DNA from: Rhizoclosmatium globosum
Lineage: Eukaryota; Chytridiomycota; Chytridiomycetes; Chytridiales; Chytriomycetaceae
Length of the DNA: 64,000 nucleotides
NCBI GenBank assembly: GCA_002104985.1
Contig: MCGO01000001.1
Span: 868,001 to 932,000, forward strand
Direction of reading: 5' to 3'
Shown in pieces: positions 34,781 through 64,000 of this stretch. Both the position numbers and the translations under genes were made by a program. The first letter of the stretch is position 1, and the number at the start of each line of letters is the position of its first letter. A model generated the notes under the pieces. That model saw only the letters and a list, made by a program, of their open reading frames with translations, ran no database searches and was not told where the DNA came from.

Positions 34781-34781
34781 A

Positions 34782-37401: not shown

Positions 37402-39772
37402 TTATTCCCACATCCGCCGAACGCTATTACTACTTGTCCCACTCATCTCTTCTTTCCGTGTGATAGAGTTGATACGAAGCGGCGCCAAATAAACAGGTCT
37501 CTCAACCCAATCCATTTCATTCCGAAAGTAGTTATGTGCTTTCCGAATCCCAGTCCACCACACGGACATCGCTCCTTTAAACGAGGCATACCTATTATTG
37601 AAGAAATTGGTTGGCTTTTGTCCCACCCCTTGACGCCTGTCCAAAGAAAATGGGATGGTTTCCAAACTCGCCTTGTAGGAGTCCTTCGTCTACTGAATGA
37701 AATGTGGGATGATGATGCGTTACTTGAAGTCTTTCGCTGTGGAGCATTTGCTGGACGGCCGAGATGGGTTCTGTGTATTACTTTGAGAAACTTGGGTATA
37801 TTGGTTTGTGTTGATTTGCTGATTCTGCTGCCAGGTAGATAAATTAAAGTAGGCTACGGATTGGTTTTGCTCGTAGTCTCCAAAGGCCTTCTCGATTCAT
37901 GCATTGGTATTTGAATGTGATGCGCTGTGGGGCATAATGTTGATGGTATGTGGAATGGTCATGCATTTCTTGATGGATTGAATTTGGCGTAGCGACATTA
38001 GATTGCTTGTGAGACTGCATGGCATATTTGAATCTTCGAAAATGATGGTAGAGTATTGGGCGAGATGTATAGAGCATATCTTGTTGTACAATTTGTTGTG
38101 CATTCAACTGAGTTGGTATAGGCTAGGTTGTTGTGGTTGCTGATAAGTTGCCAATTTTGAGACGATCGGTTCAAAGTTGAGGGTCCCGCCAACGACACAG
38201 GGCCATGGTTTTTGTTCGAAGGTTGTGAAATAGTGGAGTGCTGGCGATAAGGCGACGGCGGCTGCAAGCGAAATGGATCACCATACGGTGAGGAGACGTG
38301 CATGGAGTGCGTGTTTGTAGGTTGCTGTCGGTGATATGAAGTTTGCTGATTTGGAAACTCAGCAGGCGGATTTTGAGCAGAAGGTTTTGCGTAATTTGAC
38401 GATCCAAGAATTTCAGCTGATGGGGCATAAGCAGTGCGACTCGAATTATTCGCGGTAGTTTCTGATTTGGCAGCTTTTGGTTTTCGGTTGAAGTCCAATT
38501 CGTCATCTTCCACCTCAAAACTGCTTTCACTGTCTGTACTCGATGAATCTCGCCGTCTTTTCTTTCCTTTGCTTGCCGATCCAATTTTCGTGCTGCCGGT
38601 TTCAATCCACCAACACCATATCGTCGCACTGGAACACCACCCTGTTCCCGAAACAGAGTCTCTACTTTTGCATCCAAGCCGGCAAACAGTTCACATTCCA
38701 TCGGCCGTTTTAGCCCATCCGTAAGACTATCCACATGACACCGTTCCACATCACGCTCATAGAATAATTATGATACGGTATTTGTTGCCATCCGACCAGT
38801 AAGCCAATCGTACGTTTGCATAATCCATTGGGAATAAACCGACGGTTTCCGCGTAAAGCAACATTGAGAAATCGCGACCCTTGTTCGACGGGATTGTCGA
38901 CGTATGTGGTTTGTGTATGTGGTTCAACTTCTCTGTTATTATTATTTACATTAGTAAAAACGGTCGTGACGAAAAGCATGAGGGTAATTTGTGCCTGAAG
39001 TAAGAAATCGATTTGGGGTGGAGATGGAGAAAAAAAAGGAGATGAGGTTGCTTCCCGTCTGACGTTTTGGTCACATGACTTCAGAGTTTCATCTCAGAAG
39101 GAGTGATGCAAGACAGCGAAGGCGGGATGATTGCTCTTACCGGTACAATAAGAATGCACCCTGAGGCCTACTAGGACTCCACATCTTGATATCCTGAGTA
39201 ACAAATTTAGATAACAATGTTGACCCAATTAAACCCTCCAACGTGTTTGTTGAAGTATCGAAGAGTCCACTCACCCGCCATCGCACCATTTGGTTTCCAC
39301 CACCAGTCTCCCGGAAGACAAGAACAGTGCCGGATGGGATCTCATTCTTGAGTGCAGACACACTTCCCAATTTTGCAACGTCCAAGCAGGAGAGCCTTCC
39401 GTCAACAACAGCCTCCATAACTGATATAAGGATCGCGTTAGTAATCCGTTTAGAAAAGAGACAGAGGAGTTGGGGTGCTTGTCGCTTTAGCACCTGCAGG
39501 TATTGCCATCAAGCCTCACCAACTAGTGGCGGCTGACAGATGATGCAGTGGTAAAGGGCGGGGAAGGCGTCAACAAACCCAAAGCAGCATCAGACGAGTC
39601 TTTCAGGAACCCAAACCAACTCGCAGTGGTCCGGAGTGATTGTGTGCTTGGTTCACCCTCCTGCTCTTGGCTGTTAAGCACAATGGGAAGTACATTATGC
39701 TGAGAGAAGCAATTGATCCCGATCCACCGAGGTTCGCGGTACTGTTGCTGAAGAAGCCATTTCGTTTGTCAT
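37402..39772 (-). CDS. WOPR (Gti1/Pac2) transcription factor 1
   Basis: The ATG at 39772 gives MTNEMASSATVPRTS. First WOPR half: WFGFLKDSSDAALGLL, IPSGTVLVFRETGGGNQMVR; after an intron MWSPSRPQGAFLLYR; after another REVEPH. Second half: RRFIPNGLCKRTIG, then a glycine turn and ERDVERCHVDS. A long Gln/Ser/Pro linker leads to the C-terminal motif CPCGGLG then RKAHNYFRNEMDWVERPVYL, APLR. Several one-base slips (near 39690, 38760, 37555 and in the linker) make this the least clean member, so recent decay is possible. WOPR proteins bind DNA and act as master switches of morphology in fungi. Nearest member to the transposon insertion. Confidence 0.7.
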
Positions 39773-40386
39773 CTTAACTCAAATCGGATGAGATTGAGGC
39801 AAGACTTTCGATTTTTCCTGGAGGCTCCCCGACTTCCCAACAGTCCTTGCAAACGAGAGATTCTTCCCAAATCGAAAATCTCCATTTTTCGGGAGTATAG
39901 CTTATATCACCTAAATTTTTAGAATCGAGACAAGACCCCTACTGCAAGGGTATTGTGAAACAATAGCACCATACTCTCATATATAATCAAGTAGAAGGAT
40001 ATGACTTATCCAGCTCACGCCGATGCGTCACGACCGTATCATAGAGAATATAAGTGTTGACAAATTCTAAGATGCAAATCCCTAACGGTCCAGACTTTGA
40101 GACAGAATCAAAACAACATAGAATCAGATTATCGAGGAAGACATGACAGCAAAACCAGATTGAGCCGCAAGTAATCTGACTCATCACCAAAACACTATTT
40201 CTGAGCGCACAGCCACGAACCTAACTTGCCGATATATCACCCAAAGCCACCCTCAAGCAAAGAGTCTGGTCTCCCGTCTCTAAGACCAAGCTGAGTCATT
40301 TTTGCTGCATAATTACTAAAACAACAAGAATCCGGAAATTATCTCTATTCAATTTGAAAAGCCAAAGCGTTCAACCTCTCGGCCCT
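39773..40386. other. intergenic, no gene seen
   Basis: About 600 bases between WOPR genes 1 and 2; holds the promoter of gene 1. 'tttttcctggaggctccccga' and AT-rich runs, but no frame with a domain. Confidence 0.4.
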
Positions 40387-41895
40387 TCACTCCCTCCTCC
40401 GACTCCAAAGCGGCGCCAACCAAACCGGCCTCTCTGTCCATCCCTGATCGTACTGTAAATAGTTGTGCCATTTCCGAACCCCTAATCCGCCACACTGACA
40501 GGCCGTCTCGCAACGCGGTATCAGAGACTTGAAACATGGGGTGATATTTGTTTTCGTTCTGGAAATACGCGCGATCGTCGGTGGCTTTGAAGGGCGCTGG
40601 GATTATGGGTATAGGTTGTTGTGCAGGTGTGCGTGGTGAAGCCTCTTGAAGGTTATAACGTGGCTGTATAGGGTGTGGTCTAGCGTATGGGGTTTGGTAA
40701 TGCGATTGGTGGTGTGCGTGGGTTGTTGTGCGTTGCGGTGAGGGTTGGTAATACTTTTGTGGTGGAGTGTCAACATCATCTGAAGAATCAGTGTGTCGAT
40801 TGGTGCGATTGGCTGAGGACGACGAGTTTTGAGTCGGCTTTCGTTGTCCGAGGTTACTTGCAATTCAGTGTCGATTGATTTTATATATTGTTGGAACTCT
40901 GGGAGTTTTGATGGAATTTGGAACGTTGTAGTTGCTTCAGCTGCAACGGACGACCTGGAGTCTTCGTAGTAAGGTTCGGCATCAGCAGGATGGAAATAAG
41001 AGACAATGCGATACTTGTGGCCGTCTCCACCTGTTACTCCTATTGTTCTCTTACAAAGGCCATTCGGAATAAATCTGAGTAATCTAAGTCAGCAACTGTA
41101 ATCCTCAATCTGATTATAAATATCCAAACCTGCAGTTTCCACGAAGAGACATGTTTACAAATCTAGTACTCTGCTCTTTGATATGGGCGGTCCGGTTTGG
41201 CAATGTGTTTGACTCGACCTCTCTGTAAATCAGAGACTGATTAGCTATCAAATTGAAAATGAACGAATAGGAATAGAGCAGCTTCGGAAAATCTCGCGGA
41301 AGGAGTGCCCACAGAAAGATCAGCAATGGGGAGATCCAACAGCAAAGAGGGCACATGGCCTGCTCACCTGTACAAAAGCCACTGTCCTTGAGGTCTTGAA
41401 GGACTCCAACGTCTGCCATCCTGAATAATAAATGTCAGATTTCTTATAACCCAGTTGGGCATATATATATGAGGGTGTTGAATCGCCCCGCTTCAATTTC
41501 CCAGATTGACAATCAAACTCAAGCACCCGTTTCACTCCAAATGCCTCACTTCACCCATTCCCTCCCCTCCCACCCTCCAAACACCATACTTCACGATAAC
41601 CAAAATAAAAAGGAAGTCTCACCCTCCATCGAATCATCTGAGCCTGTGAATCCTGAAACACAAGAACAGTCCCAGATCGGATGTAAAGAGTTCCCGCCGG
41701 CGCCTGGTTAAACGACTGCAACTGCCCGGCAATACAAGCAGCCACAAGCAACGCCGCATCAACTGGATCTTTGACGAACCCGAACCACGTTTGAGAAGGT
41801 TCAACAGCGTTAGCCTCAAAGGAACCTGACATTGAAGTGGACCCCGGATTTGTGCTTGGCAGTCCAGCTGCGTTGGCGTGGTTGGGTAGTGACAT
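40387..41895 (-). CDS. WOPR transcription factor 2
   Basis: ATG 41895 (MSLPNHANAAGLPS). First half: TWFGFVKDPVDAALLVAACI, IRSGTVLVFQDSQAQMIRWR; intron; DGRRWSPSRPQGQWLLYR (about 41420-41367). Second half: EVESNTLP, RFVNMSLRGNCRF, an intron near 41080-41130, then FIPNGLCKRTIGVTGGDGHK and YRIVSYFHPADAEPY. The linker is rich in His/Thr/Gln and its frame shifts at least once (40600-40640). C-terminal tail: CQCGGLGVRKWHNYLQYDQG, WTERPVWLAPLW, stop at 40387. The four-exon layout matches genes 3 and 4. Regulatory target unknown. Confidence 0.8.
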
Positions 41896-42787: not shown

Positions 42788-44368
42788 TCATAAAATCCTT
42801 CCAAATAAACTCAAAAACCAAACATCTTTAAAAAAAGGTACAATGCGCATGACAAGTTTATATGCATCTAAAACAAACAAATCCCCCTCAAAAGGAAAAA
42901 ACGACCAACCCAAGTCACCGTCTATCCAACTGCCCCTCAACGGCGCCAACACCACAGGCCTATTCACCCAACTCACATCTTTTCCTTTAAAGTAATCAAC
43001 AGCTTTTCGAGAACCGCCGAGACCTCCACATGGACATGTTTGCTCTGATGGAACTGGTGATGGGACGGATGGTTCGACTGTAGCGTTCGTGGGCACTTCT
43101 GATTGTGGACATTGACGCACGTGGAACTGTTCAGGTTGTTGCATGGGTTTCATTGGTGTCTGTTGTGGCTGTTGTGGCTGTGGTCGAGCATAGGGAGTAG
43201 GTGGCGACGGTTTTGTACGATTGGCTGTTTCAATAGACTCTGATGATTTCTGAGGTTTCGGCTTGATGGGTTTTTCTTTTGATTCGGACGAGGTTGGAAG
43301 GCCAGCTTCCGGAGAGAGTTTTTGTTGATTTGCTTTTTCAATGAATGGTTGGAACTCTGGGTAGTGCGATGGGGGTTTAAGGCGACCGCTCATTCCAGGG
43401 GTGAAGAGGTGTTCGACGTCGAGAGGGAAGAAGTAACTGATGACGCGGTATTTCAGACCGTCCTGTTCAGGAATCAGGTGGATTCAGTATTGATGGGACA
43501 CGTAGTTGTAAGAACTCACACTTCCGGTCAAGCCGATAGTACGTTTTGCGAGTCCATTTGGAATGAATCTGCAATTTGCACGGAGAGCCATGTTTGTGAA
43601 TCTGTGTGATATTAGAAATCACAAGCTCTCCACCCCATCACCAACAATTCACCATACCGATTCGACTGTTCCGTCGGAGATCCAACAAACGTATTTTTTG
43701 TTGCGCCTTCCACTTCTCTGTTGAGGGAAATGGAGATTAGAATCCTCGTGGCGTTCAACACTGGGAGATGTAAGCCGTATCACAACTGCTGCCTCAACAG
43801 AACAGCTGTCATTCCAACACAATGATATTGTACGGATCAGTCAATGTTACATTGCATCCCGCAGGTTCCTTCGTTCCGGTAGTGAAGTTGAGGGGGGCAT
43901 ACCTGTAAAGCAAGTACGGCCCCTGCGGTCGACTAGGACTCCATCTACGTCCATCCTGCATTCAAATAAACCAAATAAGCTCCCTATCCAAAACCGCCGA
44001 ATCAAAACGAGTCCACCACCGGTACGTACCCTCCATCTGACCATCTGAGAGTACTGATTGTTCTCCGCAAAGACCACCACGGTTCCACTCTCAATCACAG
44101 GCGATGCCGTCATTGTCGGGCCGGCATTCAGGATTGGCATGAGGCCAGAGAGGGCTGCTTCGAGAACCAGCTGGCCTTCAAAGGGAGACTCGACAAACAG
44201 ATTCGAGAGATAAGGCGGCGGCGGTCTCTGGCGGGTGGTTACTTGAGCTGGAACGAGTTGTTCGTGCGGGCGATCCCGGGATTGAATCGCGGCTGTCTGG
44301 GCTTCCGCTGCCGAAATCAATGCATCGAATCCAGAGTGGCGGTGCTGCTCCGAGGGTCCCGCGTGCAT
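42788..44368 (-). CDS. WOPR transcription factor 3
   Basis: ATG 44368 (MHAGPSEQHRHSGFDAL). First half, somewhat divergent: LFVESPFEGQLVLEAALSGL, IESGTVVVFAENNQYSQMVR; intron; DGRRWSPSRPQGPYLLYR. Second half: REVEGATKNTFVG, MALRANCRFIPNGLAKRTIG, intron, DGLKYRVISYFFPLDVEHLF. A Pro/Gln/Lys-rich linker follows. Tail: CPCGGLGGSRKAVDYFKGKD, SWVNRPVVLAPLR. The frame continues about 35 residues past the usual end to 42788; one lost base in the G-run near 42942 would place a stop just after APLR. Same exon pattern as gene 2. Confidence 0.8.
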
Positions 44369-44593
44369 TGTTTGGGTTCGGTGGTGTTTGAAACAAGGTT
44401 GCACTTCTTTGTCACCTTGATTTTTGGTTGGTGGTGGAGGAAGAAAAAGAGAAGCGACTCTGAAAATTTGAGGTGTGTGTGTGTGCCTCAACCCTGATTT
44501 TGTTGTGATTTGGCATTAAAACGGTGGAGGTAAATATGTATCATCTCTATTGCACTGATATAAACATAACCCAATAATGCTGCTACAACCCAT

Positions 44594-44770
44594 TCAGGCA
44601 CGGTGATAATTCCAAAGTGGCGGTAACGAACAAGGCCGCTTCCACCAATCCGGTTCACTGTGAACATAATAATAAGGGTGCATTCCACCTAGTCCACCAC
44701 AACTGCAAACATTCCCTTTCTGATACGCCATCTCCTGCGAGTAATTATACCGCATATCCACTTGTTGCTG

Positions 44771-44814
<44 letters not shown>

Positions 44815-46100
44815 AATACTCTTGTTGCTTCTGTTGCACTATTTGTTGCGGTGATAGCCGTTGCCGATGCTGTTGAAACTGAAACGGTTGTGATTGTAGT
44901 TGTTCTTGCTGAAATTGCATCCCATGAGAATACTGCCCCTTCATAGGACTTACTCCCCCCTGCCCCCCACTTCCTGCTCGTTGCGGAGACTCTCCACCGC
45001 TCCAATCCCCGCTCCCTCTTCCTTCCACACTAACCCGTCCTTTTAACTCCTCGAAAAACTCATTCCGACTTGGAATAACTAGACCCGCTCCACTTCCGTA
45101 TCCTCCACCATCACTACGATAATATCCCTCCACATGCACAGGATAAAAGTAATTGATGACGCGGTACCGGTTCCCATCACTTCCATACAACGTAATCGTT
45201 CGTTTTGCGAGGCCATTTGGGATCAGGCGTGTGTTTGGGCGGAGAGATGTTGTGAGGAATAAAGAGGATATTTCTGGTTGTGGTGGTTCCGATAGTAACG
45301 GTAAAGCAGATGATTCGACTTCTCGGTATAGAAGGAACGGGCCGCACATTTTGGAGGATGACCAGGAGGCGCCGTCTATTGGTTTTTGTTGTGTTTTTTT
45401 TTAAATAAATAGGTTTAGATCCATTTGAGATTCAGGAGATGCAAGAGATTTTAGGATGGAAGAGTTTCGCCAGACACAATAAAACCAATTTAAAAAACGC
45501 AGCTCCATATCTTTCGTGCTTTCCCTTTTCGGTCCGTTTAACTTCGTCAGGCAGATTGAACCCAGCACTCAAAGCACCCGCTTTGCTGATGAAGCACTGA
45601 ATACTACGGCCATCACTCAACACTTCCCACAACTACATTCACCTCTCTCAAATAAAAAAAAATAATAATAAAAGATGATATTCACCTCTCCACCGCATCC
45701 TCTGCATCTGCGAACTATTCTCCGCAAACACAATACAACTCCCGCTCCGAATCTTCATGCTGCTAACGCCAATCGGCAAGTCATACAGCGCCTGCAGTTT
45801 CCCCGCGATAGTCGCTTCAACAAGGAGTTGGGCGTCGACTCTGTCTTTGACGAACCTGTTAAAGCAGGGTGGGGTTACTTGGATGATGACTCAAACAGGG
45901 AAGGTTTCTATGTTTTACCCGTAGAAGGTTTCAATGTAGTCTTGGATGTGTGGAGGCCGGTAGCTTGGTGAGTGGCTAAAATTGATTATGAGGGAATGAG
46001 GGTGGTTAGAATTCCGGTGTGTGTCAGGGGTGGGAGACAGGTTAAGCGGGTAAGACACATCCAAACAACCGCTGGATCCATGTGCGGCGTAGTGAGAAGT
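44594..46100 (-). CDS. WOPR transcription factor 4, polyglutamine linker
   Basis: Exon with DYIETFYG, then an intron (about 45930-45860) before RFVKDRVDAQLLVEATIAGK and IRSGSCIVFAENSSQMQRMR; intron; DGASWSSSKMCGPFLLYREV; SLRPNTRLIPNGLAKRTITL and YGSDGNRYRVINYFYPVHVE. The linker contains a run of about seventeen Gln (44764-44815). Tail: CSCGGLGGMHPYYYVHSEPD, WWKRPCSLPPLW. The 5' end is uncertain: the DYIETFYG exon is open to about 46120 without a clear ATG, so a further 5' intron is likely. Last leftward member; its promoter faces the P450 gene's 3' end. Confidence 0.8.
44760..44815. repeat. CTG/CAG trinucleotide run
   Basis: 'ttgctgttgttgttgctgctg' and following CTG repeats; on the coding (minus) strand CAG/CAA, giving polyglutamine in WOPR factor 4. 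Prone to length change. Confidence 0.9.
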
Positions 46101-46631: not shown

Positions 46632-48791
46632 TCACTTTCTCTTCTTGATCAACACAGGGCAACCCTCCAAATGCCTCAAGACACCACCCTGTTCACTTCC
46701 AAACTCCTCCATCCCCTTCACAACAGCACCAACATCAACACCTTCACGCCCTTTCCCAGCAACAACCTCATACCGCCTCACAATCTCCGCAACACACACC
46801 TTAACAACATCAAGCGCAATCTGCTGCCCAGGACACGCAAACGGACCCGCACTAAACGGATAATACGTAGTCTCAAACACCGGCGCCGAAAGCTTCAACG
46901 CATCCTTCACACGGTGAGACGTCTCCGCCGGAGTCTCAGCCGTCGTCGGCGTGTACTTGCGCCCATTGAACCTCTCTGGCTGGAACGCAGACGCACCTTC
47001 GCCGAACGCGGTTGTGTTTCGGAGGGTGGAGAGGAGGTCAACGACAATGTGGGTTGACTTTGGGAGCATCCATTGTCCGGGGAGGCGGTATGCGTTTTCG
47101 GGGGAGACGCGGTTGTAGGTTGTGACGAAGGGGGGCAGGAGGCGGAGGGTTTCGAGGGTGAAGGATGTGAGGGATGGGAGCGATTGCACGTGGGTTTTTG
47201 TGATTTGCTTTGCGGTGACTTTTGAGAGTTCTTGGTAGATTTGTTTTTGGTGGGTTGGGGAGTGGGCGAGGAGGTAGAGGATGTGTGGGGTGAGGGAGTA
47301 GAGTGGGGATTGGGCGGCGGTTTGGACGCTGTATTGAGTTGAGTTGTTCAGTAAGGTGTGAGATTCCTATGAATGACAAAGGTACATACGCTTCCAATTG
47401 CTCAAACAAGTCTTCCCATTCGGCATCACTCAAGTCGGTCTGTCCTTCTGGAAGGGCTGCCAACTTTGCATCCAACAGCTTTCCAGCAAGACCACCACGC
47501 TTCTTTCCAGACTCGCGGAACTCCTTGGCCATGGTTCCGTACTCAAAGTTGATGATGTTTCTAGCCTTTGTCTTTCCGTTGCGGCGGACCAAGTAGTCGC
47601 GGGATCCAGGGAGCATCAAGTATTCACTGTACTGCACGTAGTTGCGGATAATGTCAAAGTACCAAGCGATACCTAGTGTTTTGATGTTAGTGTGTGATTC
47701 AGGGAGGTTGTAATGGATGTATAGTGCTCTAAAGCTATGCAGCTTCGACTGAGGGTAACGAGCTCCATTCGAAGCCTCGCTTCGTGAAGTTCGTTCGCTA
47801 ACGCTCACAACTATCTTTTTTTGCTCGCTTCGCTCGCTATTCATCCTTTTTTTCCAGCACCTCAAACTCTCCCGTTCGCCATTATTTCGCTCGTTCCTCG
47901 CTCAGTCATGACCTCACTCGTTACAATGACATACCAGTTGGCAAGACAAAAGTCAAGTTAGCAAGACATCTTCTAGCCTCAACAACCTTCTCTCTCCTCT
48001 CAATTTCCTCCTTTGCATTAGCAACAGTTCCGGTAGCATCAAGACCAAGAACCCAAAGGGAAATGACATCGACCCACAACTCTTCAAAGACGGGACACAA
48101 GTCGAGAGTGTCCTTTTGAGCAATAGCTTCATTGAATTCAGGGAAGGTCTCTGATGCAAGACGGGCATGGAGGTGGTCAATAAGAGAAGCCGTGAGGGAA
48201 GGGTCTTGGAAGATTGAAACGAGAAGAGAGTGTTGTTTTGCGTGAGTTTCACCGTTTGTAGCCATGACACCTTTTGCAGTGTGGTTCACGACAACCCTAT
48301 TCAGTTTTCACCACCACCACACAATCAGTATTTCCCGCATCTTTCATGCTACAATAAAAGCAACACACACCTGTTCGCAATAAACTTGTCAGACAGAACG
48401 ACATTGACAGTGTTTGGATCTGAGGCGACGACGAGCGGGGCGGCAAAGAGCCACTTGACATGGTACGTTCCGAGCGAGGCGGCCTCCTTCAAAAGAACCG
48501 AGGGCGAAACAAGAGCGCGGCGGGTCAGCGCGGCCAAAGTGACTTGTTGCGCGGGCGCGGGTGTTTTCTTGTCGTCTTTGACACAAACGATCGAATCAGC
48601 CTTGGTTTTAGTTGTTTTAGTTGGTTAAGAGAAGGTATAGAAGGTACACGAAGGTACAAGAAGCTTACCTGTCCTGCGATCAACTGCTTCCACCAAATAA
48701 ACAGTACAATTCCTCCCATCAACACTAACGCCAAAAGATTCGTCTTGACGTACGTGACGCCCTTGGTCACAAGCGATGCTATGTCAAACAT
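46632..48791 (-). CDS. cytochrome P450
   Basis: ATG 48791 (MFDIASLVTKGVTYVKTNLL) opens a membrane anchor ending WWKQLIAGQ. Introns: 48608-48668, near 48300-48370, a long one at 47676-47930, and near 47340-47395. K-helix ETLRLLPPF (E-x-x-R), PERF box FQPERFNG and heme loop FSAGPFACPGQQIAL (F-x-x-G-x-x-x-C-x-G) are all present. The I-helix reads EAAVQTAAQSPLYSL, lacking the usual acid-Thr pair (A-G-x-D/E-T), so oxygen activation may differ or the enzyme may use peroxide or isomerise. ER-bound mono-oxygenase fold, substrate unknown. It is the only non-WOPR gene recognised between 37.4 and 64 kb. Confidence 0.85.
47676..47930 (-). repeat. long repeat-rich intron of the P450 gene
   Basis: About 250 bases with runs such as 'cgaagcctcgcttcgtgaag' and 'ctcgcttcgctcgctattc', partly palindromic. 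Splice joins are in phase (CCAACTG|GTATGT and CACTAG|GTATCGC). Similar in style to the ABC gene intron at 27 kb. Confidence 0.5.
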
Positions 48792-50171: not shown

Positions 50172-51469
50172 ATGATCTTTGACAGCATCTCAATCCCATC
50201 TGAGATGCCTGTTGCTACAGCAGCTCAGCAACTACCTCAAATGCTGCTACCACCACAGCTACAACTGCCACTGCTGCCCCTGCAGCCTCACGCAGGTTCA
50301 CTGAAACTTGGAAGGGATTCATCCAAGAGCCGCTCGATGCCCAACTTGTCATTGAAGGCTGCGTATCTGGGCTCCTCCAACCACTCAACATCATTCCAAT
50401 GTCCCTTTCAGACCTGACAATCCGCTCAGGAACCGTGCTTGTCTTTGCAGAGAACTCAGCAATGGGCCAGATGGTTCGATGGCGAGATGGATGCAGGTGG
50501 TCGGCATCTAGGCTTCAAGGCCCCTTCCTCCTCTATCGGTGAGTAGGGTTCTTAATTATCTAAAGATTCTTGATGACTTAATAATGGTATATCAGCGAGG
50601 TTGAAGCGTCATCAAATACAAGCTCTTCGGAACCAGAACGGGATGTTCGCTTTGTGAATACGGTTGTGCGTGGGAAGACCAAGTTTGTTGCGAATGGAAT
50701 GGCGAAGCGAACGTTGACTTTGACGGGATCGGATGGAAACAGATACCGTGTCATTTCGTACTTTTATCCAGCGGATGTGGCGCATTTGTATGGAGACCCT
50801 GTTGTGACGGTGTCGGAAAAAGTGCAGATGTTGTCGACTCCTTCTCGAATGCCAGAATTTGCTCGATTTGTGGGGAAGACGGGTCCATTGCCTAGCTTTA
50901 CTATGCCGGATTTATCGTACCAGGCTCTCAGACGGCCTGCTGCTTCGTCGTCATCGTCTTTATTGGCATCAAGGCAAACTGAGTCACCACGGAATCAATT
51001 CATCCCAACACAACAACAACCCCAACAGCAACCCCAACAAATTCAACAGCGTCCATTCGACTCTCACCCTCACCACCAACAACACCAACACCAGCACCAC
51101 AGCCATCTTCAACACCAAAAGCCAACGCCGTACCCATCCCCCGCCCAACCATCCTACACAACCAAACAGAAACTCCCCATCACAGAAACCCCAACCCCAG
51201 ACGGAAACTTCTTCGCAACCCACCCAATCTTCAACATCCACAACCACCCTTCAGCCGCACCAGCCTCCTGCCCTCCATCCACCACTACCACATCATCAAC
51301 CTCCCATTCCTCCTCCGAACACTGCTGCGGATGTGGAGGCCTTGGAATCCGGAAAGCGACAGACTATTTCAGGAACGATCCGTTTTGGACAGAGTTTCCT
51401 GTACGCTTGCGCCGTTGCGGAATATGAAGAAGAGGGGTAGTGAGTGTGATGAGGGCGAGGAAGCGTGAT
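50172..51469 (+). CDS. WOPR transcription factor 5
   Basis: ATG 50172 (MIFDSISIPSEMPVATAAQQ). One base seems lost near 50235 (CC for CCC); the next frame then runs through an Ala/Thr stretch into FTETWKGFIQEPLDAQLVIE, LTIRSGTVLVFAENSAMGQM, RWRDGCRWSASRLQGPFLLY. An intron at about 50539-50596 precedes EVEASSN, VRGKTKFVANGMAKRTLTLT, GSDGNRYRVISYFYPADVAH. The linker is Gln/His/Pro-rich. Tail: CCGCGGLGIRKATDYFRNDP, FWTEFPVRL; adding a G at 51401 continues into APLRNMKKRG and a stop at 51467-51469. Here the W-S-A-S block has no intron, unlike genes 1-4. Confidence 0.82.
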
Positions 51470-51998: not shown

Positions 51999-53227
51999 AT
52001 GGATCCACTCGCCGAGCTATCCCTTCTCGCATCGCATCTCCTTGACAAGGACGACCAAGTCCGAGGGGTCCGGCCCACCTACCCCCATATACCCACCCAC
52101 TCACACCACCAATCATGTTCTATTGTACCACAATCAGACACCCACCTGCTCCTAGTCACCTGCAAAACCCCAGTCCTCGGATCTCATTCAATCACCTCCA
52201 ACCTCCTACTTTTACCGGATACGTCAAGTCGCCTCTGGATGCAGCTCTACTAGTCGAAGCCGTTGTAACACGGACACTTCCGCTCGTCCGGATCACTGAA
52301 CACATGTCGTGTATTGCGTTGGACAGCGGGACTGTCTGCGTCATGAGGCGGGATGAAGGGGAAGCGTGTTTAGGAATTATGGAGAAGGTATGTAGCTTTT
52401 GAATTCAGGTTCCCACTCTTACGTTGTTGAGAGTATGTGGGAGTTCAAATGAAAACTTGGTTGGCTGATTAAACGAGTTTTTTTTCAGAATGGATGCAGT
52501 CGATGGTCTTTTGGAATTAAGCAAGGACTGTTTATGTTATATCGTGAAGTGGAACCGGCTTCGTCAGCGTTGAAATGGAGTGGTGATGAGAATGAGGGTT
52601 TGCCACGACTAATTCCTGATGGTCTCTGCAAAAAGGCAATACCGATAATAGGAAGTGACGGAATTGAATATTTGGTCGTGGGATACTATAAAGCAAGGGA
52701 TGTGGTAAGTCCGCTGCTCTTTGCTTTTAGAACTCATTGGATCCCAACATCCTCCATCTCAACCGGGTCCTTATTTTATTCTTCCAGGTCCATTTCTACA
52801 CTAGACCACCGTATCCCGTGTCGATAGATTCAGCTCAAAATACCCTAATCTCACGTCCGAGTCCACAGCGTGTCGACGCTTTATTAATTCCCTCAGAAAC
52901 GTCATTCTTGCACACTTAATGTCAAGAGTGGATCCAAGTTTAATTCCAGTCGCTCACTCATACATTCCTCCGCTGAAACCCCATTCACACTTCCCACTAT
53001 TTACGGATTTAACTGTATCGGGGTGTACATGTCCAGAATCCTTAAAAGAGACACGGTTATCTGATGGTGATTTGGGAACTGGAAACTCATCAAGGATAGA
53101 AATAGCGAAACTTGTGTGGACCGAATGCCTTATACATAATGATAGTTGGATCCAGAACGGCTGTATGATGATGAGGATGAAGAGAAAGAGGCTGAAATGG
53201 GTTGAATTACTCATAGTAGTTTGCTGA
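51999..53227 (+). CDS. divergent WOPR-like factor 6
   Basis: ATG 51999 (MDPLAELSLLASHLLDKDDQ). First half shortened: TFTGYVKSPLDAALLVEAVV, LDSGTVCVMRRDEG; intron (52389-52488); CSRWSFGIKQGLFMLYREVE. Second half: PRLIPDGLCKKAIPIIGSDG, IEYLVVGYYKARDVV; intron; HFYTRPPYPV. Here the usual W-x-D-G-x-x-W-S-x-S-R is W-S-F-G-I, and K-R-T is K-K-A. The usual C-terminal W...APL tail is absent, although CTCPESLKETR keeps a C-x-C. One base is missing near 52915. Twin of gene 7. Confidence 0.7.
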
Positions 53228-53462
53228 ATAATAGTAAAACTAATACACTTAATGAATACAATCCTTTGTGAAAGTAATCCGACTTACCGGAAGTACGGAA
53301 CGGATCAAATAAACACATCCGCAACGTCACGTTTTTCCACGGAGCATTTGGAAGTCAGCGACCTCAATCTCCTTTCTTTTCCAAAAAGGCTCATCCCCGG
53401 AGCACAACCACCATCCGGAACAAATCTTCAGCTTATCTCTATCCGAGAAATATCTAATTACG

Positions 53463-54705
53463 ATGGACCCTCTTTCACAACTGTCCCTTCTCGCTACTCA
53501 GCTGCTCAAAGAAGAACCTCCGATAACTGTCTCCTCCGCCTCTCATGCGCCGCCTCAACCACACCCACCACACATACCTCCCCCTCCACACCAGCGACAC
53601 ACTACCATCAGAACCATCCACAATCCATGCAAAGACCATCTGATCCTGGTCACCTGCAAATCTGTGTGTAAGGGCATCTCATTTGAACATGCCCAACGAC
53701 CCACCTTCATCGGATACCTCAAAACGCCACTGGATGCAGCGCTACTAGTCGAAGCAGTTGTCTCAGGCACACTTCCGCTGGTCCGGATCACTGAGACAAC
53801 GTCGCACTTGCTTTTACAAAGCGGAACAATATGTGTAATGAAAAAGGAACATGGCGATATGGTGTTGAACGGCTGTAATAAGGTTCGTTAGTCTTCTCGG
53901 TTCCGGATTGGTTTTGCCTCTCCGGAGAAATACAAAGTGGTCCCGTTTCAATGAAGTGACTTGTGATTCTTATTACTTTTAACAGCAGGGCTCTCGATGG
54001 TCTTTCGGAATTGAACAAGGTCTGTTTACGATATTCCGCGAGGTGGAGCCGTTGGCGAAAGTCCAAGAACGTTGTGGAATTGGAAATAAGGAGGATGAGG
54101 GCAAACCAAGACTCGTGACTGATGGTCTCTGCAAGAAATCTATCTCTATAACCGGTAGCGACGGAATCGAATATTTGGTTATTGGCTATTATTACGCAAA
54201 GCATGTGGTGAGTTGAAGTCTTCGTGATATCTACCCAAGATCAGCCTATCTAATTATGTTAACTTCCCGTAATGTCCTAACCACTATTAAAAAATAGGTT
54301 CATTTTTACACGCGACCACCATTCCCTGTTCCTGGAGCACCACCACCGAAGGCGCCACTGAATTCCCTTATTATACCCTCCGAAACGACCCAGTTCAATC
54401 ACCTTCTACCTCGTATTCATCCGTCTTTAAATCCACCTCGTCCAACCGATATACCGCTCTTTCAAGCATATTGTCCTATATTCCGAGGCATTGAAAACGC
54501 AGAGTGCACCTGCCCCCCATCTCTGAAGCCTCTTCGGTTTCGCCATCAACAGGCAGCGGATGCCTCCGTGAAAAAGATGATTGGCAACACGCCGGACTCA
54601 TCTCCAGAGCGTAAACGAAGAGGAAGTTTCAAGTTGTGTTGGGGAGAAGAAGGTGGCGACGATGATGATGAGGACTTGGACAATAAGGAATCAGTGATGG
54701 GTTGA
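53463..54705 (+). CDS. divergent WOPR-like factor 7
   Basis: ATG 53463 (MDPLSQLSLLATQLLKEEPP). Same exon plan as gene 6: RPTFIGYLKTPLDAALLVEA, LQSGTICVMKKEHGDM; intron (about 53886-53986); GSRWSFGIEQGLFTIFREVE; PRLVTDGLCKKSISITGSDG, IEYLVIGYYYAKHVV; intron (54209-54298); HFYTRPPFPVPGAPPPK. The C-terminus is acidic (EEGGDDDDEDL) after CTCPPSLKPLR and lacks the W...APL tail. The proline-rich N-terminus is longer than in gene 6. No frame slips seen, so this subtype is maintained rather than decaying. Confidence 0.75.
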
Positions 54706-56757: not shown

Positions 56758-57904
56758 TGTCGCCACGAACAGGTCACAAGACCCGCATACTCTCCAGTCT
56801 TTCCAGGCCCAAGCCCAAAAACCTTTTTCATTTCTCCTCTAATACTCGTTTAGCCAAGACTCCAAACGATGTCAGCGCTCCACTATACACAGCAACCAGC
56901 GCGTATGACCTTCAAACCATCTCCGGTTCAAGTTACTACAAGATCACCAGGATCACACAATCTAGCTGTTGTCACAACACTCCCTACTCCACCTCCTGCA
57001 AAACCACCAGCGTCATTCTTTGGGCATATTCGATCGGATATCGATGCTGCTATACTCGTAGAAGCATGCATTCGAGGGGAGATGGAAGCGTTGAATAGGT
57101 TCGTTGCCAATCCCACACATGGGGGAAATCTACTAACAGCACTTATACAACCTTAGCACAAACACTCCAATGAACTCAGTGCAGATACAGAGCGGCACTT
57201 GTGTTGTCTTTACAGAGGGAATGAAGAAGGGTGAATTGGTGCGATGGAGGGTTGGTGTCTTTCACTGAGTTCCCCACACCCAATTAAATTGAAGCTTACC
57301 ATTGATAGGATGGCATGAATTGGAGTGCGAGTAGAATCCAAGGACCCTTCTTACTTTATCGAGAGGTATATCCAGGCAAGCAACCACGTCCACCCGTCAC
57401 TCGGGAATCATCAACAACTGAACTTCGCTTTGGAAAAACCACTGTTCGAGGCGACTACTCGCATGTACGTGGAGGATTGGCAAAGAGAACGATTAGCATT
57501 GTTGGATCCAATAGGCAGAAATACCGAGTTATCAGTTATTTCTATCCATGCGAAGTAGCCCATTTGTACGGCGAGTTGACGGTTCTTCCAAACGCACTTC
57601 GGGCTCCGTCTGAGTTAGCACAATTTACGAAATACTTGTACAATCGTGGTCGCAAGGCTGAAATCGTTTTACAACCGTTGAGTCTTGTGCGTGCAGTACT
57701 CCCAAACAATATTCAACAAATGGAGCACGACCCTATTCGGCAAACATAGGGAACCGTTATAATCCATACCCTTCTCCATCGAGCCCTGTAAAGCTTAGCC
57801 TGAGTAAATGCGCTTGTGGTGGACTTGGATCTAAAACTCACGGAGGTCATAAGGATTGGGAGAATGAGAGTTTAATATTGGCACCCATTCAAAAATTCAT
57901 TTGA
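56758..57904 (+). CDS. WOPR transcription factor 9
   Basis: Start either at 56758 (MSPRTGHKTR, needing one lost base near 56860) or at 56869 (MSALHYTQQPARMTF), which is open without repair. First half: SFFGHIRSDIDAAILVEACI, RGEMEALN; intron (57098-57157); STNTPMNSVQIQSGTCVVFT, ELVRWR; intron; DGMNWSASRIQGPFLLYREV. Second half: VRGDYSHVRGGLAKRTISIV, GSNRQKYRVISYFYPCEVAH. Near 57748 one more slip leads into CACGGLGSKTHGGHKDWENE, SLILAPIQKFI, stop 57902-57904. Short linker, compact member. Confidence 0.78.
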
Positions 57905-58181
57905 GGAATAAAACTAAGCTCTCACGCATACACTATGGTTACTTCATCACTGACAAGAAACGATCTTCACGATCAACAGCCACGAATACAGCGCTCCCAC
58001 GAAAACGCCGATGGAACCCACGATTTCCCAGTATATTGAGGCACCAATCGAAGGGTAGTGGCCCCACGAAACAGCTTGAACTCCACGAATTTTGCCTTCC
58101 CCACGATTTTGCTTTCCTCACGAAAGAACAACCAAAAAACGTAAATCAATCCCACGGTTTTCACCAAAAACACTTCGCCAA

Positions 58182-58881: not shown

Positions 58882-59433
58882 AGCACACCTTTGTAGCATA
58901 AATAAACCATAGACTTAATTTCATTATTTGACGCTTCATGATAAAAGTAGAACTTTGGACAGTTATGCTGAAGAAAGGGCCGAACCTTGCAACAACGGCG
59001 GAGGTTAAGCGACGACGACGATGTTGATGGGTTTAAGGGTGTCTGCTGTAGCTGCAATAGTAAAAACCAGTTAACAGACATTGTATAATGAATAAGAGAT
59101 ATCTGTTAGATGCACGCACAAGGAAATCTTTCCTTTCGGGAGCAAGCCAAAAAGAGGAGGGCACGCTCTTTGACAATCAGCTAACCACAAGCCCGCAACT
59201 CCAATAGTATCATGCAACTTAAAATGGGAGCTACAAGACATGCCACTATCCAGGTTTCAAGCTGTCAAACGAATCGAAATAGCTTACGTGCAGCCGCTCG
59301 AAGTTTGATTAAATCTTAGGGGCTTCTTCGGGAAATTTCATTTTCCCCCTTCGTTTTTCTTCTCCATCACACCCCTTTCAATCTCGATCTCTTTTCCCCT
59401 TTCATCCATTTGCTTTACAAGATAACATACGAT
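58882..59433. other. intergenic, no gene seen
   Basis: 550 bases; ends with a pyrimidine-rich stretch (59340-59405) just before the ATG of WOPR 11, as in many fungal promoters. No domain. Confidence 0.4.
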
Positions 59434-60682
59434 CATGTCGTCCAGCTCATCTGTCAGTCCGCCTCCAGCACAGGCAACACAGCCCATGTGCCAATGCAGT
59501 GCCCAATGCTAGAGAGATCTGAAACCAACATTCATCAAACCTTCACCTTACCATCTCAGGGTCCATCTACCACTGCCATGCCACTTCAGAAGGCGAATGA
59601 ATCCGAAACTTACTTTGGGTATGCACAGTTCCTTCCCTCGTTTCATCCACTCTTCCCCGGACCATCACTAATCGAAAACATCTTCCACACTCACAGATTC
59701 GTCAAGGATGTTAACGATGCAGCGCTATTGATTGAAGCCTGTGTAGCAGGCGAACTCCAAACAATGCAGGATCTTCCTTATGGCATGACTGCGCTTCCGA
59801 TCCGATCAGGATCAGTCATTGTCTTTGCAGAAAACAGCTCAAAGTCCCTTCGAGTTCGATGGAGAGATGGTGCCCTGTGGTGAGGATTTCTTTGCTTTGT
59901 CAGCTTCGTTTGGTGCTTTTATTGATTTCGAACTGAATAGGTCCTGCTCTCGAATCTGTGGGCCTTTCTTGCTTTACCGTGAAGTTGTATGCACAAAAGA
60001 TGCGGCGGGAAATCCGATTCCGAAAGCTGTTTCAAGTGTGAAGGAGAAGAAGTCCCCATTCACAGTCTCCAGCGTCCGAGCAAACTCTCGACTTGTCCCA
60101 TGCGGTCTTGCGAAGAGAACGATTTCTTTAAACGGATCCGACGGGAACAAATACAGGTGAGTTTTACTTTTTATACACGTAAGGGTTCGTGAGCTGATTT
60201 TACATCTCCGACAATAGAGTAATTTCTATTTCTACCCTCAAGATGTTTCTTCTTACTATGAAAGAAGTACAAATAGACAACCCTCTTCCCTGGTGACTCC
60301 CTCTCAGCTTCCGCTGTTCCAAAAGTATGCCGACAGGGTTCAGTTCAATGCTCTTCCAGAGATGGCACCTCCAGCCGCTGCATCGACAATTGCAACACCA
60401 GTGATTCCAAGCAGCGTCATTCCACCTCGACCTTCGTCGGTTCCGTCACCAGTTCCTCCCTTAGTTCTCCTCTCAAGCCCACGTTCGAGTGATGTAGAGT
60501 ATAAGGAATCACCAACATCTTCGTTGCGTATGGCAGCGGTGATGCGGAACTCACATCATATCAACGCTTATCATCCATACGCTTCGACGAATTCGTCTTT
60601 GTTGCCGCCACGCAAACAATTTGACCGTCGATGGGTTGAAGGACCTGCAATTTTGGCTCCGCTTGTCAAGCATGACATCTAA
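59434..60682 (+). CDS. WOPR transcription factor 11
   Basis: ATG 59434 (MSSSSSVSPPPAQATQPMCQ); a lost C near 59507 links to ERSETNIHQTF. First half: HRFVKDVNDAALLIEACVAG, LPIRSGSVIVFAENSSKSLR, VRWRDGALW; intron (59881-59940); SCSRICGPFLLYREVV. Second half: SSVRANSRLVPCGLAKRTIS, LNGSDGNKYR; intron (about 60157-60218); YFYPQDVSSYYER. Ser/Pro linker; tail RRWVEGPAILAPLVKHDI without the C-x-C-G part. The intron splitting R|VI of the YRVISY block is shared with genes 3 and 8. Confidence 0.82.
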
Positions 60683-61004
60683 AAGACTATCAGAAGTTAT
60701 TTTCTTTGAGTTAGAGGCGATGTGTATAAATGATGATTGTTTGGGATTATTGCGTTTGACTGTTTTTCTTTTAACTTTTTGAGCTCCTACGTTGGGCTAT
60801 GTTGTTTATTTTTTTTTTTATTGCAATAAACGTGTTCACTTAACTGGTGGCTGTGTTGGTGATCGTATTATGGCTTTTAGTTTGGAGGCTTTTTGTGAAA
60901 GAATTAGAAGAATTCTCTACGTAACGAGTCCAACAAAACGTTCCGAGGGACTTTCGCTTTCGATGTTAGAAGTTAGTAAAGCAAAGGACGAAAACACATT
61001 TTAA
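60683..61004. other. intergenic, no gene seen
   Basis: 320 bases with a T-run at 60809-60820 and 'caataaacg' at about 60823, a probable poly(A) signal of WOPR 11. The frame at 60792-61004 has no domain. Confidence 0.4.
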
Positions 61005-61981
61005 ATGGGAGATGCGGAATCTGATCACCATTCAAGTGAGGCAACTTGCCGAATTTTCATTGTCAATCTCTTAACTTTTGGCATATACTGTTCTCCGACA
61101 CACTTCAAGTGGATTCCATCCAATAGGCACTCAGCAGGGTTTATCGTGTCACTACATCAAATGCAACAAAAAGGGAACTTCTCCGAGACGTTCAAAGGGA
61201 TGGTTTCCACCGAATTCGATGCCTGCTTACTTATTGAAGCCTGTATCGGTATGTCTCGCTGCTTGCTCTAATCAGTATGTTAACTAAAGCAAATAACGTT
61301 CAATCCATCCAGCAAACGTGCTTCACACTGTAAACACTCAGATCCATTCATCAATCAAAATGAAAATCCAGAGTGGCACCTGCGTTGTATTTGCGGAAAC
61401 CAAGGACTCGTTACATACAGTGCGATGGCGTGATGGACTGCAATGGAGTGCAAGCCGGAACCAAGGCTCGTTTCTATTGTACAAGGAAGTCGACGACCGC
61501 AAAAAGATTAAGCCTGATGGTTTGTCAAACGAACTATTACGCTTGAAGGGTCTGATGGTATACGTTATCGAGTTGTGTCTATTATTGCCTGGCGGATCTG
61601 AATGTGTTGGGCAAGAGGAAGTACGGAGAGGGCGACGGTGTCCTGAAGCTGAAGAGTCCTTCTGAGTTGGAAGAATTTAAGCAGTTTTATGCTTTGGTTG
61701 AGAAAAATCCGGCGGTAATGGATTCCAGGCCAACAACTTGTAAAACCCTAAAACCAAGAAACTTGAAGTCACAGCTTTCATATTCCAACCCGCTTCAGCA
61801 TTTCTCATCATTAAACGATCAGATGATGTACTATCCGGTGAATTATTATCAACCTTGTTTTTGCGGGGAAAGTCTCAATGGGCAAGAGTTTAATAACCTT
61901 ATTTTTCGTCACTCTTGCTCCAACTGGTGGAACGGGCCTGTATTACTGGCGCCATTAGTGAGATGTGATATGGAGTTCTGA
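61005..61981 (+). CDS. WOPR transcription factor 12
   Basis: Open from ATG 61005; the true start may be later (MQQKGNFSETFKG, about 61160). First half: FKGMVSTEFDACLLIEACI; intron (about 61246-61312); MKIQSGTCVVFAETKDSLHT, VRWRDGLQWSASRNQGSFLL, YKEVDDRKK. The second half is cut short: IKPDGLSNELLRLKGLM instead of P-N-G-L-x-K-R-T, then a slip near 61610. Tail: CFCGESLNGQEFNNLIFRHS, NWWNGPVLLAPLVRCDMEF. The loss of K-R-T may weaken DNA contact, or be due to a further lost base at 61530. Tail and first half are clear. Confidence 0.75.
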
Positions 61982-62490: not shown

Positions 62491-63335
62491 ATGTCCTTGC
62501 CAAGTCCATCATATGCATCAACCATCACTCATACTGAGCAGTTTGAGAGCGATTACGTTTCGCCACTGACAACTTCTGGCAAGTTCTTTGAGAGCTTCTA
62601 CGGCGTTGTTCACAGCATGGACGACTGCAAGATCCTTGTTGAACAAAGTATCCAAGGAAACATCCCACTCTTCACTGCCAAGCAATCAGCTTCTCCTTTG
62701 CGAATCCGGTCTGGCTCAGTCCTTGTCTTTGAAGAGTCCTGCATGAAGTCATTTCGCGAAGGCGGAAAATGGAGCTGTTCCCGTAGCAGAGGCCCCTTTC
62801 TGATGTATCGCGAAGTCGAGCAGATCACTGCAAGAACTTTAACCAAGTGCACAAACGCAGCTATCGCGAAAGCCCTGAATTTAAGACCAATGGACTAAGA
62901 CCAAATACCCGTCTTATTGTCAATGGCCTTGTGAAGAGAACTGCCAGTGTTATTGGCAGCAATGGAATCAACTACCGGGTCATTTCGTATTTCTACCCAA
63001 AGGATGTTGATGCTGCGAATCCAGCGGCTCATTTGAAGGCCCCATCGCAGATTCCTGCTTTGTCTCGTCCAGTATCAGTGGTTCGCTCTCCAACTCCCGA
63101 TTTCATTGTCAAGTCGCACTCTCAAGCCATGTCTCCAAAGTCTCCTTCTCCTGATTTTATTCCTCCTTCGCCTCCCGTTCAGCTTATGCAATTCCACGTC
63201 CAGCGTGAGGTACCGTCTCTCTTCTTCAAGAGCAAGCCTGAACAGCTTGCAAGCATTCACAAAGTCATTGGCTCTTTGGACTCTAACTGGATGAGCAGAC
63301 CAGTCTTTTTGCCACCGTTGGCTCGTCCATGCTAA
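62491..63335 (+). CDS. WOPR transcription factor 13, intronless
   Basis: ATG 62491 (MSLPSPSYASTITHTEQF). FFESFYGVVHSMDDCKILVE runs straight through the point where genes 4, 8 and 14 have an intron after FYG. Then LRIRSGSVLVFEESCMKSFR, KWSCSRSRGPFLMYREVEQ. One slip at about 62850 leads to GLRPNTRLIVNGLVKRTASV and IGSNGINYRVISYFYPKDVD. Short Ser/Pro linker; tail DSNWMSRPVFLPPLARPC. No intron anywhere, while sisters have three to six, so it may stem from retroposition. Upstream ATGs in the same frame exist but the chosen start matches the family's short N-terminus. Confidence 0.8.
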
Positions 63336-63665
63336 ACATTTGCATTTCATCTTTCATTTCATTATGCCACTAGAGATAATCACTGTTAATCATTTTACGT
63401 AATAATACCATATTTTGCATTTCTATTTTTTGTTCAACCAGGGATGTTGTGTGGATTGCAAAGCATTTCATCAAAGTGCTGGGGGTTTGCACACTCAAAT
63501 ACAGCCATTCAGCATCGAACTTCAATACGCAGCCGTCAATATGAAAGAATAAATAAGTACGACACACAATAACGTATATCCGGTCCAAGACTTCAAAAAC
63601 AAAATGCGGCTGTCCCGAAATCAAATTCGAAAAAAGACAGCCCACTTTCCTTCACTCCAAAGTGT
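63336..63665. other. intergenic, no gene seen
   Basis: 330 bases, AT-rich, between two rightward WOPR genes. No domain in any frame. Confidence 0.4.
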
Positions 63666-64000
63666 ATGTCTGACCAACTATCGCCTCAACATCCCGGAAA
63701 CTGGCAGTACCCAATTCCCAGTGACAGTAGCTCTGAGCGGCAGGCTCAAGATGCTCACCAGTCGCAATACAACCAATTAACAGCGTATCCGGTTCCGCAA
63801 GCCCCTGACTCATCAAACCAATACACACAACAGCACCAACCACTGCCTTCCATTCACCAGTTTTACCACCAGACACAACATCAGACACCGACACAGATTG
63901 TTCAAAACCAACCCCATCAATCGTACGGCAACCCCATCCCGTTCCAAGTCAAAGTTCCGCCACCGAATGATACAATCTTGGAAACGTTCTACGGGTGAGC
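63666..64000 (+). CDS. WOPR transcription factor 14, first exon only (runs off window)
   Basis: ATG 63666 (MSDQLSPQHPGNWQYPIPSD). The visible exon is Gln/Pro/Ser/Tyr-rich (QYTQQHQPLPSIHQFYHQTQ) and ends PPPNDTILETFYG followed by GTGAGC, a donor site. The same I-x-E-T-F-Y-G at an exon end precedes the WOPR domain in genes 4 and 8, so this is very probably the N-terminal exon of a further member. No WOPR residues lie inside the window, so the call rests on that junction and on position. Confidence 0.65.

What the first reader, a model, noticed from the sequence alone, without database searches (positions are those of the whole stretch)
37402..64000. Tandem array of at least fourteen WOPR (Gti1/Pac2) regulators
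Seen: thirteen complete WOPR-type genes plus one 5' exon in 26.6 kb, recognised by the paired blocks I-R-S-G-x-V-x-V-F, W-S-x-S-R-x-x-G-P-F-L-L-Y-R-E-V and P-N-G-L-x-K-R-T-I...Y-R-V-I-S-Y-F-Y-P. Known: most studied fungi keep only a few WOPR genes, and these (Wor1, Ryp1, Sge1, Gti1, Pac2) are master switches of form and virulence. Inference: local duplication has built a regulator family that could act combinatorially in zoospore, encystment or rhizoid programmes. The array continues past the window.
Basis: partly seen in the sequence, partly recalled or inferred. Interest (0 to 1): 0.9.

Follow-up and report, generated by a model that had tools for sequence, protein, structure and literature searches.

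The report
Ancient WOPR regulator array in chytrids
A run of about twenty neighbouring genes for WOPR-type fungal switch proteins sits in the chytrid Rhizoclosmatium, and many of them match genes that appear to lie side by side in other chytrid genera too, so this looks like an old, kept cluster rather than a recent local copying event.

Summary
The window (Rhizoclosmatium globosum, contig C1) carries 13 WOPR genes plus the first exon of a 14th. Twenty lie between 38.8 and 77.1 kb and an outlying 21st at 90 kb. All 21 match Pfam Gti1_Pac2; a model of an A05 orthologue aligns to the DNA-bound structures 4m8b and 4qtj/4qtk. The genome holds about 70 WOPR places, roughly 45 after collapsing apparent contig partners.

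Correction to the interpretation: this is not a recent local expansion. Nine array members pair in the tree with genes of other genera. All nine Obelidium proteins on one 152,575-base contig fall in array clades; its other six pair with Rhizoclosmatium genes outside the array. Many array-type proteins share a C-terminal module (CxCGGLG...W...PVxLAPL): 65 of 127 relatives, 0 of 1270 shuffles. Three DNA-loop positions are nearly fixed within orthologue groups but differ between paralogues.

Artefact is unlikely. Frame breaks exist (A01, A12, A05 5' end). Stage-specific or combinatorial function is untested, and the known WOPR site is not enriched upstream.

The parts
37405..39612 (-). A01, WOPR gene; domain 38800-39612, C-terminal module 37474-37571 (in two frames)
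   Evidence: frame breaks relative to P0086 of JEL0117
40403..41895 (-). A02, WOPR gene; domain 40960-41781, C-terminal module 40405-40503; N-terminal limit is the first likely ATG, not proven
   Evidence: groups with Obelidium P0072 and Siphonaria P0077 (starred, not supported in the reduced tree)
42935..44368 (-). A03, WOPR gene; domain 43400-44197, C-terminal module 42935-43039; N-terminal limit approximate
   Evidence: orthologues Obelidium P0055, Siphonaria P0065 (77% domain identity)
44597..45890 (-). A04, WOPR gene; domain 45113-45857, polyglutamine tract, C-terminal module 44612-44713
46632..48624 (-). cytochrome P450 gene between the minus-strand and plus-strand halves of the array (not a WOPR gene); upper limit uncertain
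   Evidence: PF00067 3.3e-26 on 46635-47366; the frame 47924-48307 gave no Pfam match
50172..51427 (+). A05, WOPR gene; domain 50315-50797, C-terminal module 51323-51409; 5' end differs in frame from JEL0117 P0001
   Evidence: domain 100% identical to P0001, 91% to Obelidium P0064 over the part P0064 covers
51999..53227 (+). A06, WOPR gene with degenerate DNA loop; domain 52217-52805; gene limits approximate
53463..54705 (+). A07, tandem sister of A06; domain 53712-54315; gene limits approximate
   Evidence: dN/dS to A06 0.19 over 130 domain codons
55223..56443 (+). A08, WOPR gene; domain 55223-56023, C-terminal module 56330-56431
56869..57901 (+). A09, WOPR gene; domain 57022-57575, C-terminal module 57803-57889 (in another frame)
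   Evidence: public protein P0003; orthologue Obelidium P0061
58080..58789 (+). A10, divergent WOPR gene; first half 58191-58442, second half in the frame 58442-58786
59494..60682 (+). A11, WOPR gene; domain 59695-60265, end of C-terminal module 60617-60664; 5' limit approximate
   Evidence: orthologue Obelidium P0027 (74% domain identity)
61203..61981 (+). A12, WOPR gene with a frame break in the second half; end of C-terminal module 61916-61957
   Evidence: relative without the break, Podochytrium P0020
62491..63335 (+). A13, divergent WOPR gene; second half ends 63008, end of C-terminal module 63279-63320; 5' limit approximate
63573..64000 (+). A14, 5' exon; its WOPR domain lies beyond the window at 64149-64818 (continued coordinates)
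   Evidence: orthologue Obelidium P0040

Best explanation
This is an old tandem cluster of WOPR-domain transcription regulators that was already present, at least in part, in the common ancestor of several genera of Chytriomycetaceae-type chytrids and has been kept since. Shown: about twenty neighbouring genes with a WOPR domain, orthologue pairs across genera that share contigs or neighbouring locus tags there too, and a shared C-terminal module. Inferred: each protein binds DNA through the WOPRa/WOPRb fold and its minor-groove loop, recruits a common partner through the C-terminal module, and differs from its neighbours in when it is made and, through a few fixed loop residues, in which sites it prefers, so that the set divides up developmental switching in the chytrid life cycle.
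Against: No expression, binding or knock-out data were available. The Wor1/Ryp1 consensus TTAAAGTTT is not enriched in 21 x 900 upstream bases: 1 seen, 0.28 expected, reached in 48 of 200 resamples; with one mismatch 9 seen, 7.3 expected, reached in 20 of 60. Auto- or cross-regulation through the known site is therefore not supported. Six members are long-branched or weakly placed (A06, A07, A10, A13, A19, A21) and seven (A06, A07, A08, A13, A18, A19, A21) depart from the R[WF][RK]D loop motif, so part of the set may not bind DNA in the usual way. A01 and A12 have frame breaks in this assembly. Twelve array members have no well-supported one-to-one partner in another genus. In the reduced tree the A02 group is not supported, and Obelidium P0053, which pairs with non-array C146, falls in the same open fork as A04 and A08 when C146 is left out. 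Linkage in the other genera was read only from locus tags and equal contig lengths, not from DNA. The trees rest on 144 columns and many deep forks are open.
Confidence: 0.62

Rival explanations
1. Birth-and-death family: tandem copies arise and decay with only a few members (such as A05 and A03) under strong selection, and the array is mostly a by-product of unequal crossing-over.
For: Long-branched members A06, A07, A10, A13, A19, A21 and frame breaks in A01 and A12; several array members (A04, A08, A10, A17) have no clear one-to-one partner; Obelidium has three A03-type genes on its array contig where one was found in R. globosum.
Against: Nine orthologue groups kept across genera, with array-type genes linked in several of them; even the degenerate pair A06/A07 shows dN/dS 0.19; some frame breaks are small shifts where relatives read through.
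Confidence: 0.22
2. Arms-race array, comparable to vertebrate KRAB zinc-finger clusters (recalled): WOPR paralogues diversify to silence transposable elements.
For: Tandem regulator array; paralogue-specific residues in the loop block; a zinc-knuckle gag-like frame between 203-base direct repeats 99% identical lies just left of the array.
Against: The loop residues are fixed within orthologue groups, not fast-changing; the best conserved member is 91% identical across genera over the compared part, unlike an arms race; one neighbouring element is not an association.
Confidence: 0.06
3. The proteins keep the WOPR fold but the array works mainly in mating or cell-type identity (as Pac2 does in fission yeast, recalled) rather than in zoospore or rhizoid programmes.
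For: Passages on known WOPR proteins tie them to sporulation, sexual development and morphology alike.
Against: The one piece of the array tested (57,022-60,700) has no second haplotype copy in the assembly. Surroundings were not searched for mating-type genes: only ten open frames were scanned with Pfam, so this hardly counts against it.
Confidence: 0.1
4. Assembly artefact: copies multiplied by the assembler.
For: Other WOPR contigs of this assembly are near-identical pairs or triples (94.7-99.6% over 5.6-9.8 kb).
Against: The array piece tested is unique, 37.4-64.0 kb has no long internal repeats but A06/A07, members are 25-65% identical, and orthologues occur in other sequenced genomes.
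Confidence: 0.01

Closest known systems
WOPR (Gti1/Pac2) regulators: Wor1, Ryp1, Sge1, Mit1, YHR177W, OsaA, Ros1, Pac2
   Same: Same Pfam family, both WOPRa and WOPRb blocks, and for the A05 orthologue modelled the same fold as the DNA-bound YHR177W and Wor1 domains.
   Different: [quoted passage not shown] here about 70 places and an array of about twenty. WOPRb carries GSDGxxYRVISYFYP where YHR177W and Wor1 have FHLIAYYTEKD and IHLISYYSKQD. Many array-type proteins end in a CxCGGLG...W...PVxLAPL module, not found in any of the 21 further relatives (which include one Synchytrium, one Parasitella and deep Chytriomyces types).
Clustered regulator families of other lineages (Hox, KRAB zinc-finger clusters; recalled, no call)
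   Same: Tandem paralogous DNA-binding regulators kept together over long time.
   Different: Different protein family and kingdom; no evidence here of collinear expression or of transposon targets.

Membership tests
WOPR / Gti1_Pac2 (PF09729) | Profile match to PF09729 | tested here: met
   19 of 19 models at E <= 0.001 plus pieces of A10 and A12 over the cut-off; weakest printed score A06, 26.9 bits against a cut-off of 23.6
WOPR / Gti1_Pac2 (PF09729) | Both conserved halves, WOPRa and WOPRb, joined by a variable linker | tested here: met
   Alignment A1 covers both halves in 17 of 19 rows; the A01 row stops after CKRTIGL and the A20 row lacks the first part (A20's first part is a separate match at 76,644-76,715). 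A12 has a frame break in the second half and A10's second half is in another frame
WOPR / Gti1_Pac2 (PF09729) | WOPR fold as in DNA-bound 4m8b and 4qtj/4qtk | tested here: met
   [not shown]
WOPR / Gti1_Pac2 (PF09729) | Sequence-specific DNA binding | not testable with these tools
   Both loop motifs kept in 14 of 21 members, both lost in A06, A07 and A18
Tandem array conserved across genera | Orthologues clustered in other genera | tested here: met
   Obelidium 9 of 15 proteins on one contig length, all 9 in array clades; neighbouring tags in Siphonaria, Podochytrium and Rhizoclosmatium JEL0117. Contig identity is inferred from equal contig length
Tandem array conserved across genera | Same gene order in other genera | not testable with these tools
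   DNA of those contigs was not available to me; only A15-A16 order (Podochytrium P0026) could be read, from one gene model

The most novel reading that the evidence does not exclude
A Hox-like WOPR cluster: an ancient ordered set of some twenty fungal switch regulators, each with its own fixed residues in the DNA-binding loop and many with a shared partner-binding tail, switched on in turn through the chytrid life cycle from zoospore to thallus.
Probability: 0.14. Interest if true: 0.92.

Novelty: new variant of a known kind. Interest (0 to 1): 0.68.

Why it matters
WOPR proteins are known as lone master switches of fungal form and virulence. A fungus with about seventy WOPR places, some twenty of them in one cluster whose members several genera share, would be a rich natural set for learning how WOPR domains evolve specificity, and gives an obvious list of candidate regulators for chytrid development, where the life-stage atlas text names no transcription factor. 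It also says that the picture of two WOPR genes per fungus does not hold for this group of chytrids.

Tried and rejected
Assembly artefact: rejected. Recent species-specific expansion: rejected (AU test). WOPR-site feedback: tested and not supported. Four words were tried: TTAAAGTTT 1 seen, 0.28 expected; TTAAAGTT 1, 1.00; TAAAGTT 3, 2.92; TTAACTTT 3, 1.07 (19 of 200 resamples reach it). The upstream stretches were cut by a fixed 900-base rule from the domain start, so they include coding and intron sequence of neighbours. De novo upstream words, not corrected for the number tried: TAATGAA in 9 of 21 against 2 of 41 background pieces, AGAGATA 8 against 1, AAGAAAAA 9 against 1; not pursued. Tandem-repeat and inverted-repeat searches showed nothing that would obviously drive duplication. 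The C-terminal module was not folded alone; its stretch of the model has low to middling pLDDT. Searches for a published account: WOPR + chytrid + expansion (1 paper, PMC8396895, passages, not on this); Gti1 + Pac2 + Chytridiomycota (2); WOPR + crystal structure + DNA recognition (2, listing only); WOPR + gene family + tandem duplication (1, a maize paper, listing only); Rhizoclosmatium globosum + transcription factor (2); Gti1 + chytrid (2, the same); Rhizoclosmatium globosum + RNA-seq (15, 10 listed); WOPR, Wor1, minor groove, any two (31, 10 listed); Chytriomycetaceae, gene cluster, transcription factor, any two (38,712 papers, 10 listed, none on this). Of what I saw only PMC10406608 bears on it: passages list Gti1/Pac2 among the most dynamically changing transcription-factor families but describe no array. 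PMC8778642 has no occurrence of Gti1 or WOPR in its main text. The library holds open-licence papers only, so this is no proof that nothing is in print. A third database search with deep members returned 27 proteins, mostly Chytriomyces, one Obelidium, one Synchytrium, one Parasitella and three unnamed; its candidates were capped, so absence of array-type genes in other chytrid orders is not shown.
Full report
What is there. The window is part of contig C1 (868,001-932,000) of an assembly of 56.9 Mb in 420 contigs. The organism is Rhizoclosmatium globosum: contigs of 1,023,498, 885,996, 692,062 and 587,774 bases carry named R. globosum proteins in the protein database and have the same lengths here. 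I wrote a spliced profile aligner and scanned window coordinates 1-92,000, using three fetched stretches beyond the window. With the open frames it gives 21 WOPR loci: A01-A04 on the minus strand (38.8-45.9 kb), A05-A20 on the plus strand (50.3-77.1 kb) and A21 on the minus strand (89.9-90.4 kb). A21 stands apart, and similar-scoring hits on C184, C292 and C293 leave its membership of the array open. A cytochrome P450 gene stands between A04 and A05. Nothing of the family was found in 1-37 kb.

How many in the genome. Merging the places found with the Pfam model and two protein queries gives 49 further loci outside the array, 47 on 21 other contigs and two on C1 at 450 and 497 kb, about 70 in all. 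Many contigs are near-identical partners: 94.7-99.6% over 5.6-9.8 kb where I had fetched both. Collapsing these leaves roughly 45; that is my own tally, resting in part on equal hit scores only. A second, more distant type sits in smaller groups, such as four in a row on C118 and on C279. [quoted passage not shown]

Not an artefact. A 3.7-kb piece of the array matches only itself in the assembly. The only repeat of 60 bases or more found within 37.4-64.0 kb is A06 against A07. Array domains are 25-65% identical, median 40%. A05's domain is letter-identical in Rhizoclosmatium sp. JEL0117.

Age. Two protein searches returned 106 different proteins, all from Rhizoclosmatium, Chytriomyces, Obelidium, Physocladia, Podochytrium, Siphonaria and Entophlyctis. 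A tree of 134 domain rows and 144 columns places A02, A03, A05, A09, A11, A12, A14, A15 and A16 each with partners from other genera with starred support; a reduced tree of 41 rows repeats this for all but A02. Holding 15 array rows together as one clade costs 562 log units, p-AU 7e-62. Left out of that test were six long-branched array rows (A06, A07, A10, A13, A19, A21) and all rows of Chytriomyces, Physocladia and Entophlyctis. By plain identity, 16 of 21 members are closer to a domain of another genus than to any array paralogue, several only by one to three points; A04, A06, A07, A19 and A20 are not. So at least nine of the paralogues are older than the genera.

Kept together. In Obelidium mucronatum 15 proteins were found. 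Nine sit on a contig of 152,575 bases and all nine fall in array clades, P0074 without a one-to-one partner. Six sit on contigs of 294,079, 402,532 and 559,873 bases and group with Rhizoclosmatium genes outside the array. A perfect split of 9 and 6 has a chance of 1 in 5005 if contigs were unrelated to clades (my arithmetic). One of the six, P0053, pairs with non-array C146 but falls in the same open fork as A04 and A08 in the reduced tree, where C146 was not included. Chytriomyces cf. hyalinus has five on a contig of 251,513 bases, including the A05 orthologue. Siphonaria has A05- and A02-type genes with consecutive tags; Podochytrium has A15- and A16-type domains in one gene model in the same order and an A12-type gene two tags on; JEL0117 has A05 and A03 two tags apart. 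I could not read the DNA of those contigs, so order beyond tags is unknown.

A new tail. Many array-type proteins end in a short module, roughly CxCGGLGxxxxxxYFxxxPxWxxxPVxLAPL. A model from 37 examples finds it in 65 of 127 database relatives (28 not used in the model) and in 0 of 1270 shuffled sequences; none of the 21 further relatives has it at E below 1. In the array it is found for 14 of 21 members: A01-A05, A08, A09, A11-A14, A16, A17 and A20 (several as partial hits with E of 0.0002-0.003, A01 in two frames). A18 and A19 end instead in a PLxLPPS motif that Physocladia P0008 shares (by eye). The paired cysteines suggest metal binding or a protein contact; this is inference.

Loop residues. 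Comparing nine orthologue groups column by column, identity is 0.77 within and 0.46 between groups; in the block RWRDGxxWSxSRxxGPFL it is 0.95 and 0.65. Inside that block three positions (61, 64 and 67 of the A05 domain) are 91-100% the same within groups and 18-23% between. A loop enters the minor groove in the solved complexes (passage in PMC4567300); that this block is that loop is recalled, and whether these three residues touch DNA was not checked. The positions were chosen after looking, six of the nine groups have two members, and A05 supplies 21 of the 33 within-group pairs, so treat this as a lead.

Selection and decay. A06 and A07, which lack the loop motifs, still show dN/dS 0.19 at dS 1.24 over 130 domain codons, so they seem to be maintained. 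A01 changes frame twice in the second half where P0086 of JEL0117 reads through, and once at the tail. A12 has a frame shift in WOPRb that Podochytrium P0020 lacks, and the 5' end of A05 differs in frame from P0001. These may be assembly indels or strain-specific damage; I cannot tell. Only two array members (A09 as P0003, A01 as P0106) came back as R. globosum database proteins, so public annotation may not show the array well; the searches are not exhaustive.

Function. The known relatives switch developmental states, and the array offers many candidate switches in a fungus with sharply distinct stages. I could reach no expression data: the main text of the life-stage atlas has no occurrence of WOPR, Gti1 or transcription factor (PMC8887899, term search), and its supplements were not available to me. 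The known WOPR site is not enriched upstream. The developmental role is therefore inference from family, age and constraint.

Verdict. I rate it a new variant of a known kind, with good interest for fungal regulator evolution.

Noticed in passing
window 34579-36608: Gag-like frame with a zinc knuckle (34779-35981, PF00098) between two 203-base direct repeats 99% identical (34579-34781 and 36406-36608), next to the left edge of the array; looks like a small LTR-type element. Observed only.
   Followed up: partly
G000 contigs C118 (40-49 kb) and C279 (81-91 kb): A second group of four WOPR genes in a row, of a more distant type, seen on two contigs with near-equal hit scores; their DNA was not fetched.
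   Followed up: partly
G000 contigs C50/C237/C376, C13/C38, C13/C21, C146/C92, C404/C10, C166/C10: Near-identical contig partners (94.7-99.6%) carrying the same WOPR genes, which suggests that both haplotypes of a diploid are partly kept in the assembly.
   Followed up: partly
L011:6500-7159 (window coordinates 88500-89159, +): An open frame contains PLVLPPS and PLLLPSS stretches like the C-termini of A18, A19 and Physocladia P0008, without a WOPR domain found beside it on that strand; possibly a decayed or alternative family member.
   Followed up: no
Chytriomyces cf. hyalinus contig of 992,932 bases: Three deep-branching WOPR proteins (P0100, P0113, P0114) share one contig length, which hints that WOPR groups on one contig arose more than once.
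   Followed up: no
window 5877-8479 (+): Two neighbouring Ser/Thr-rich frames (5877-6707 and 7631-8479) that end alike, with a GAIAGIV-type membrane stretch followed by YRRK.
   Followed up: no
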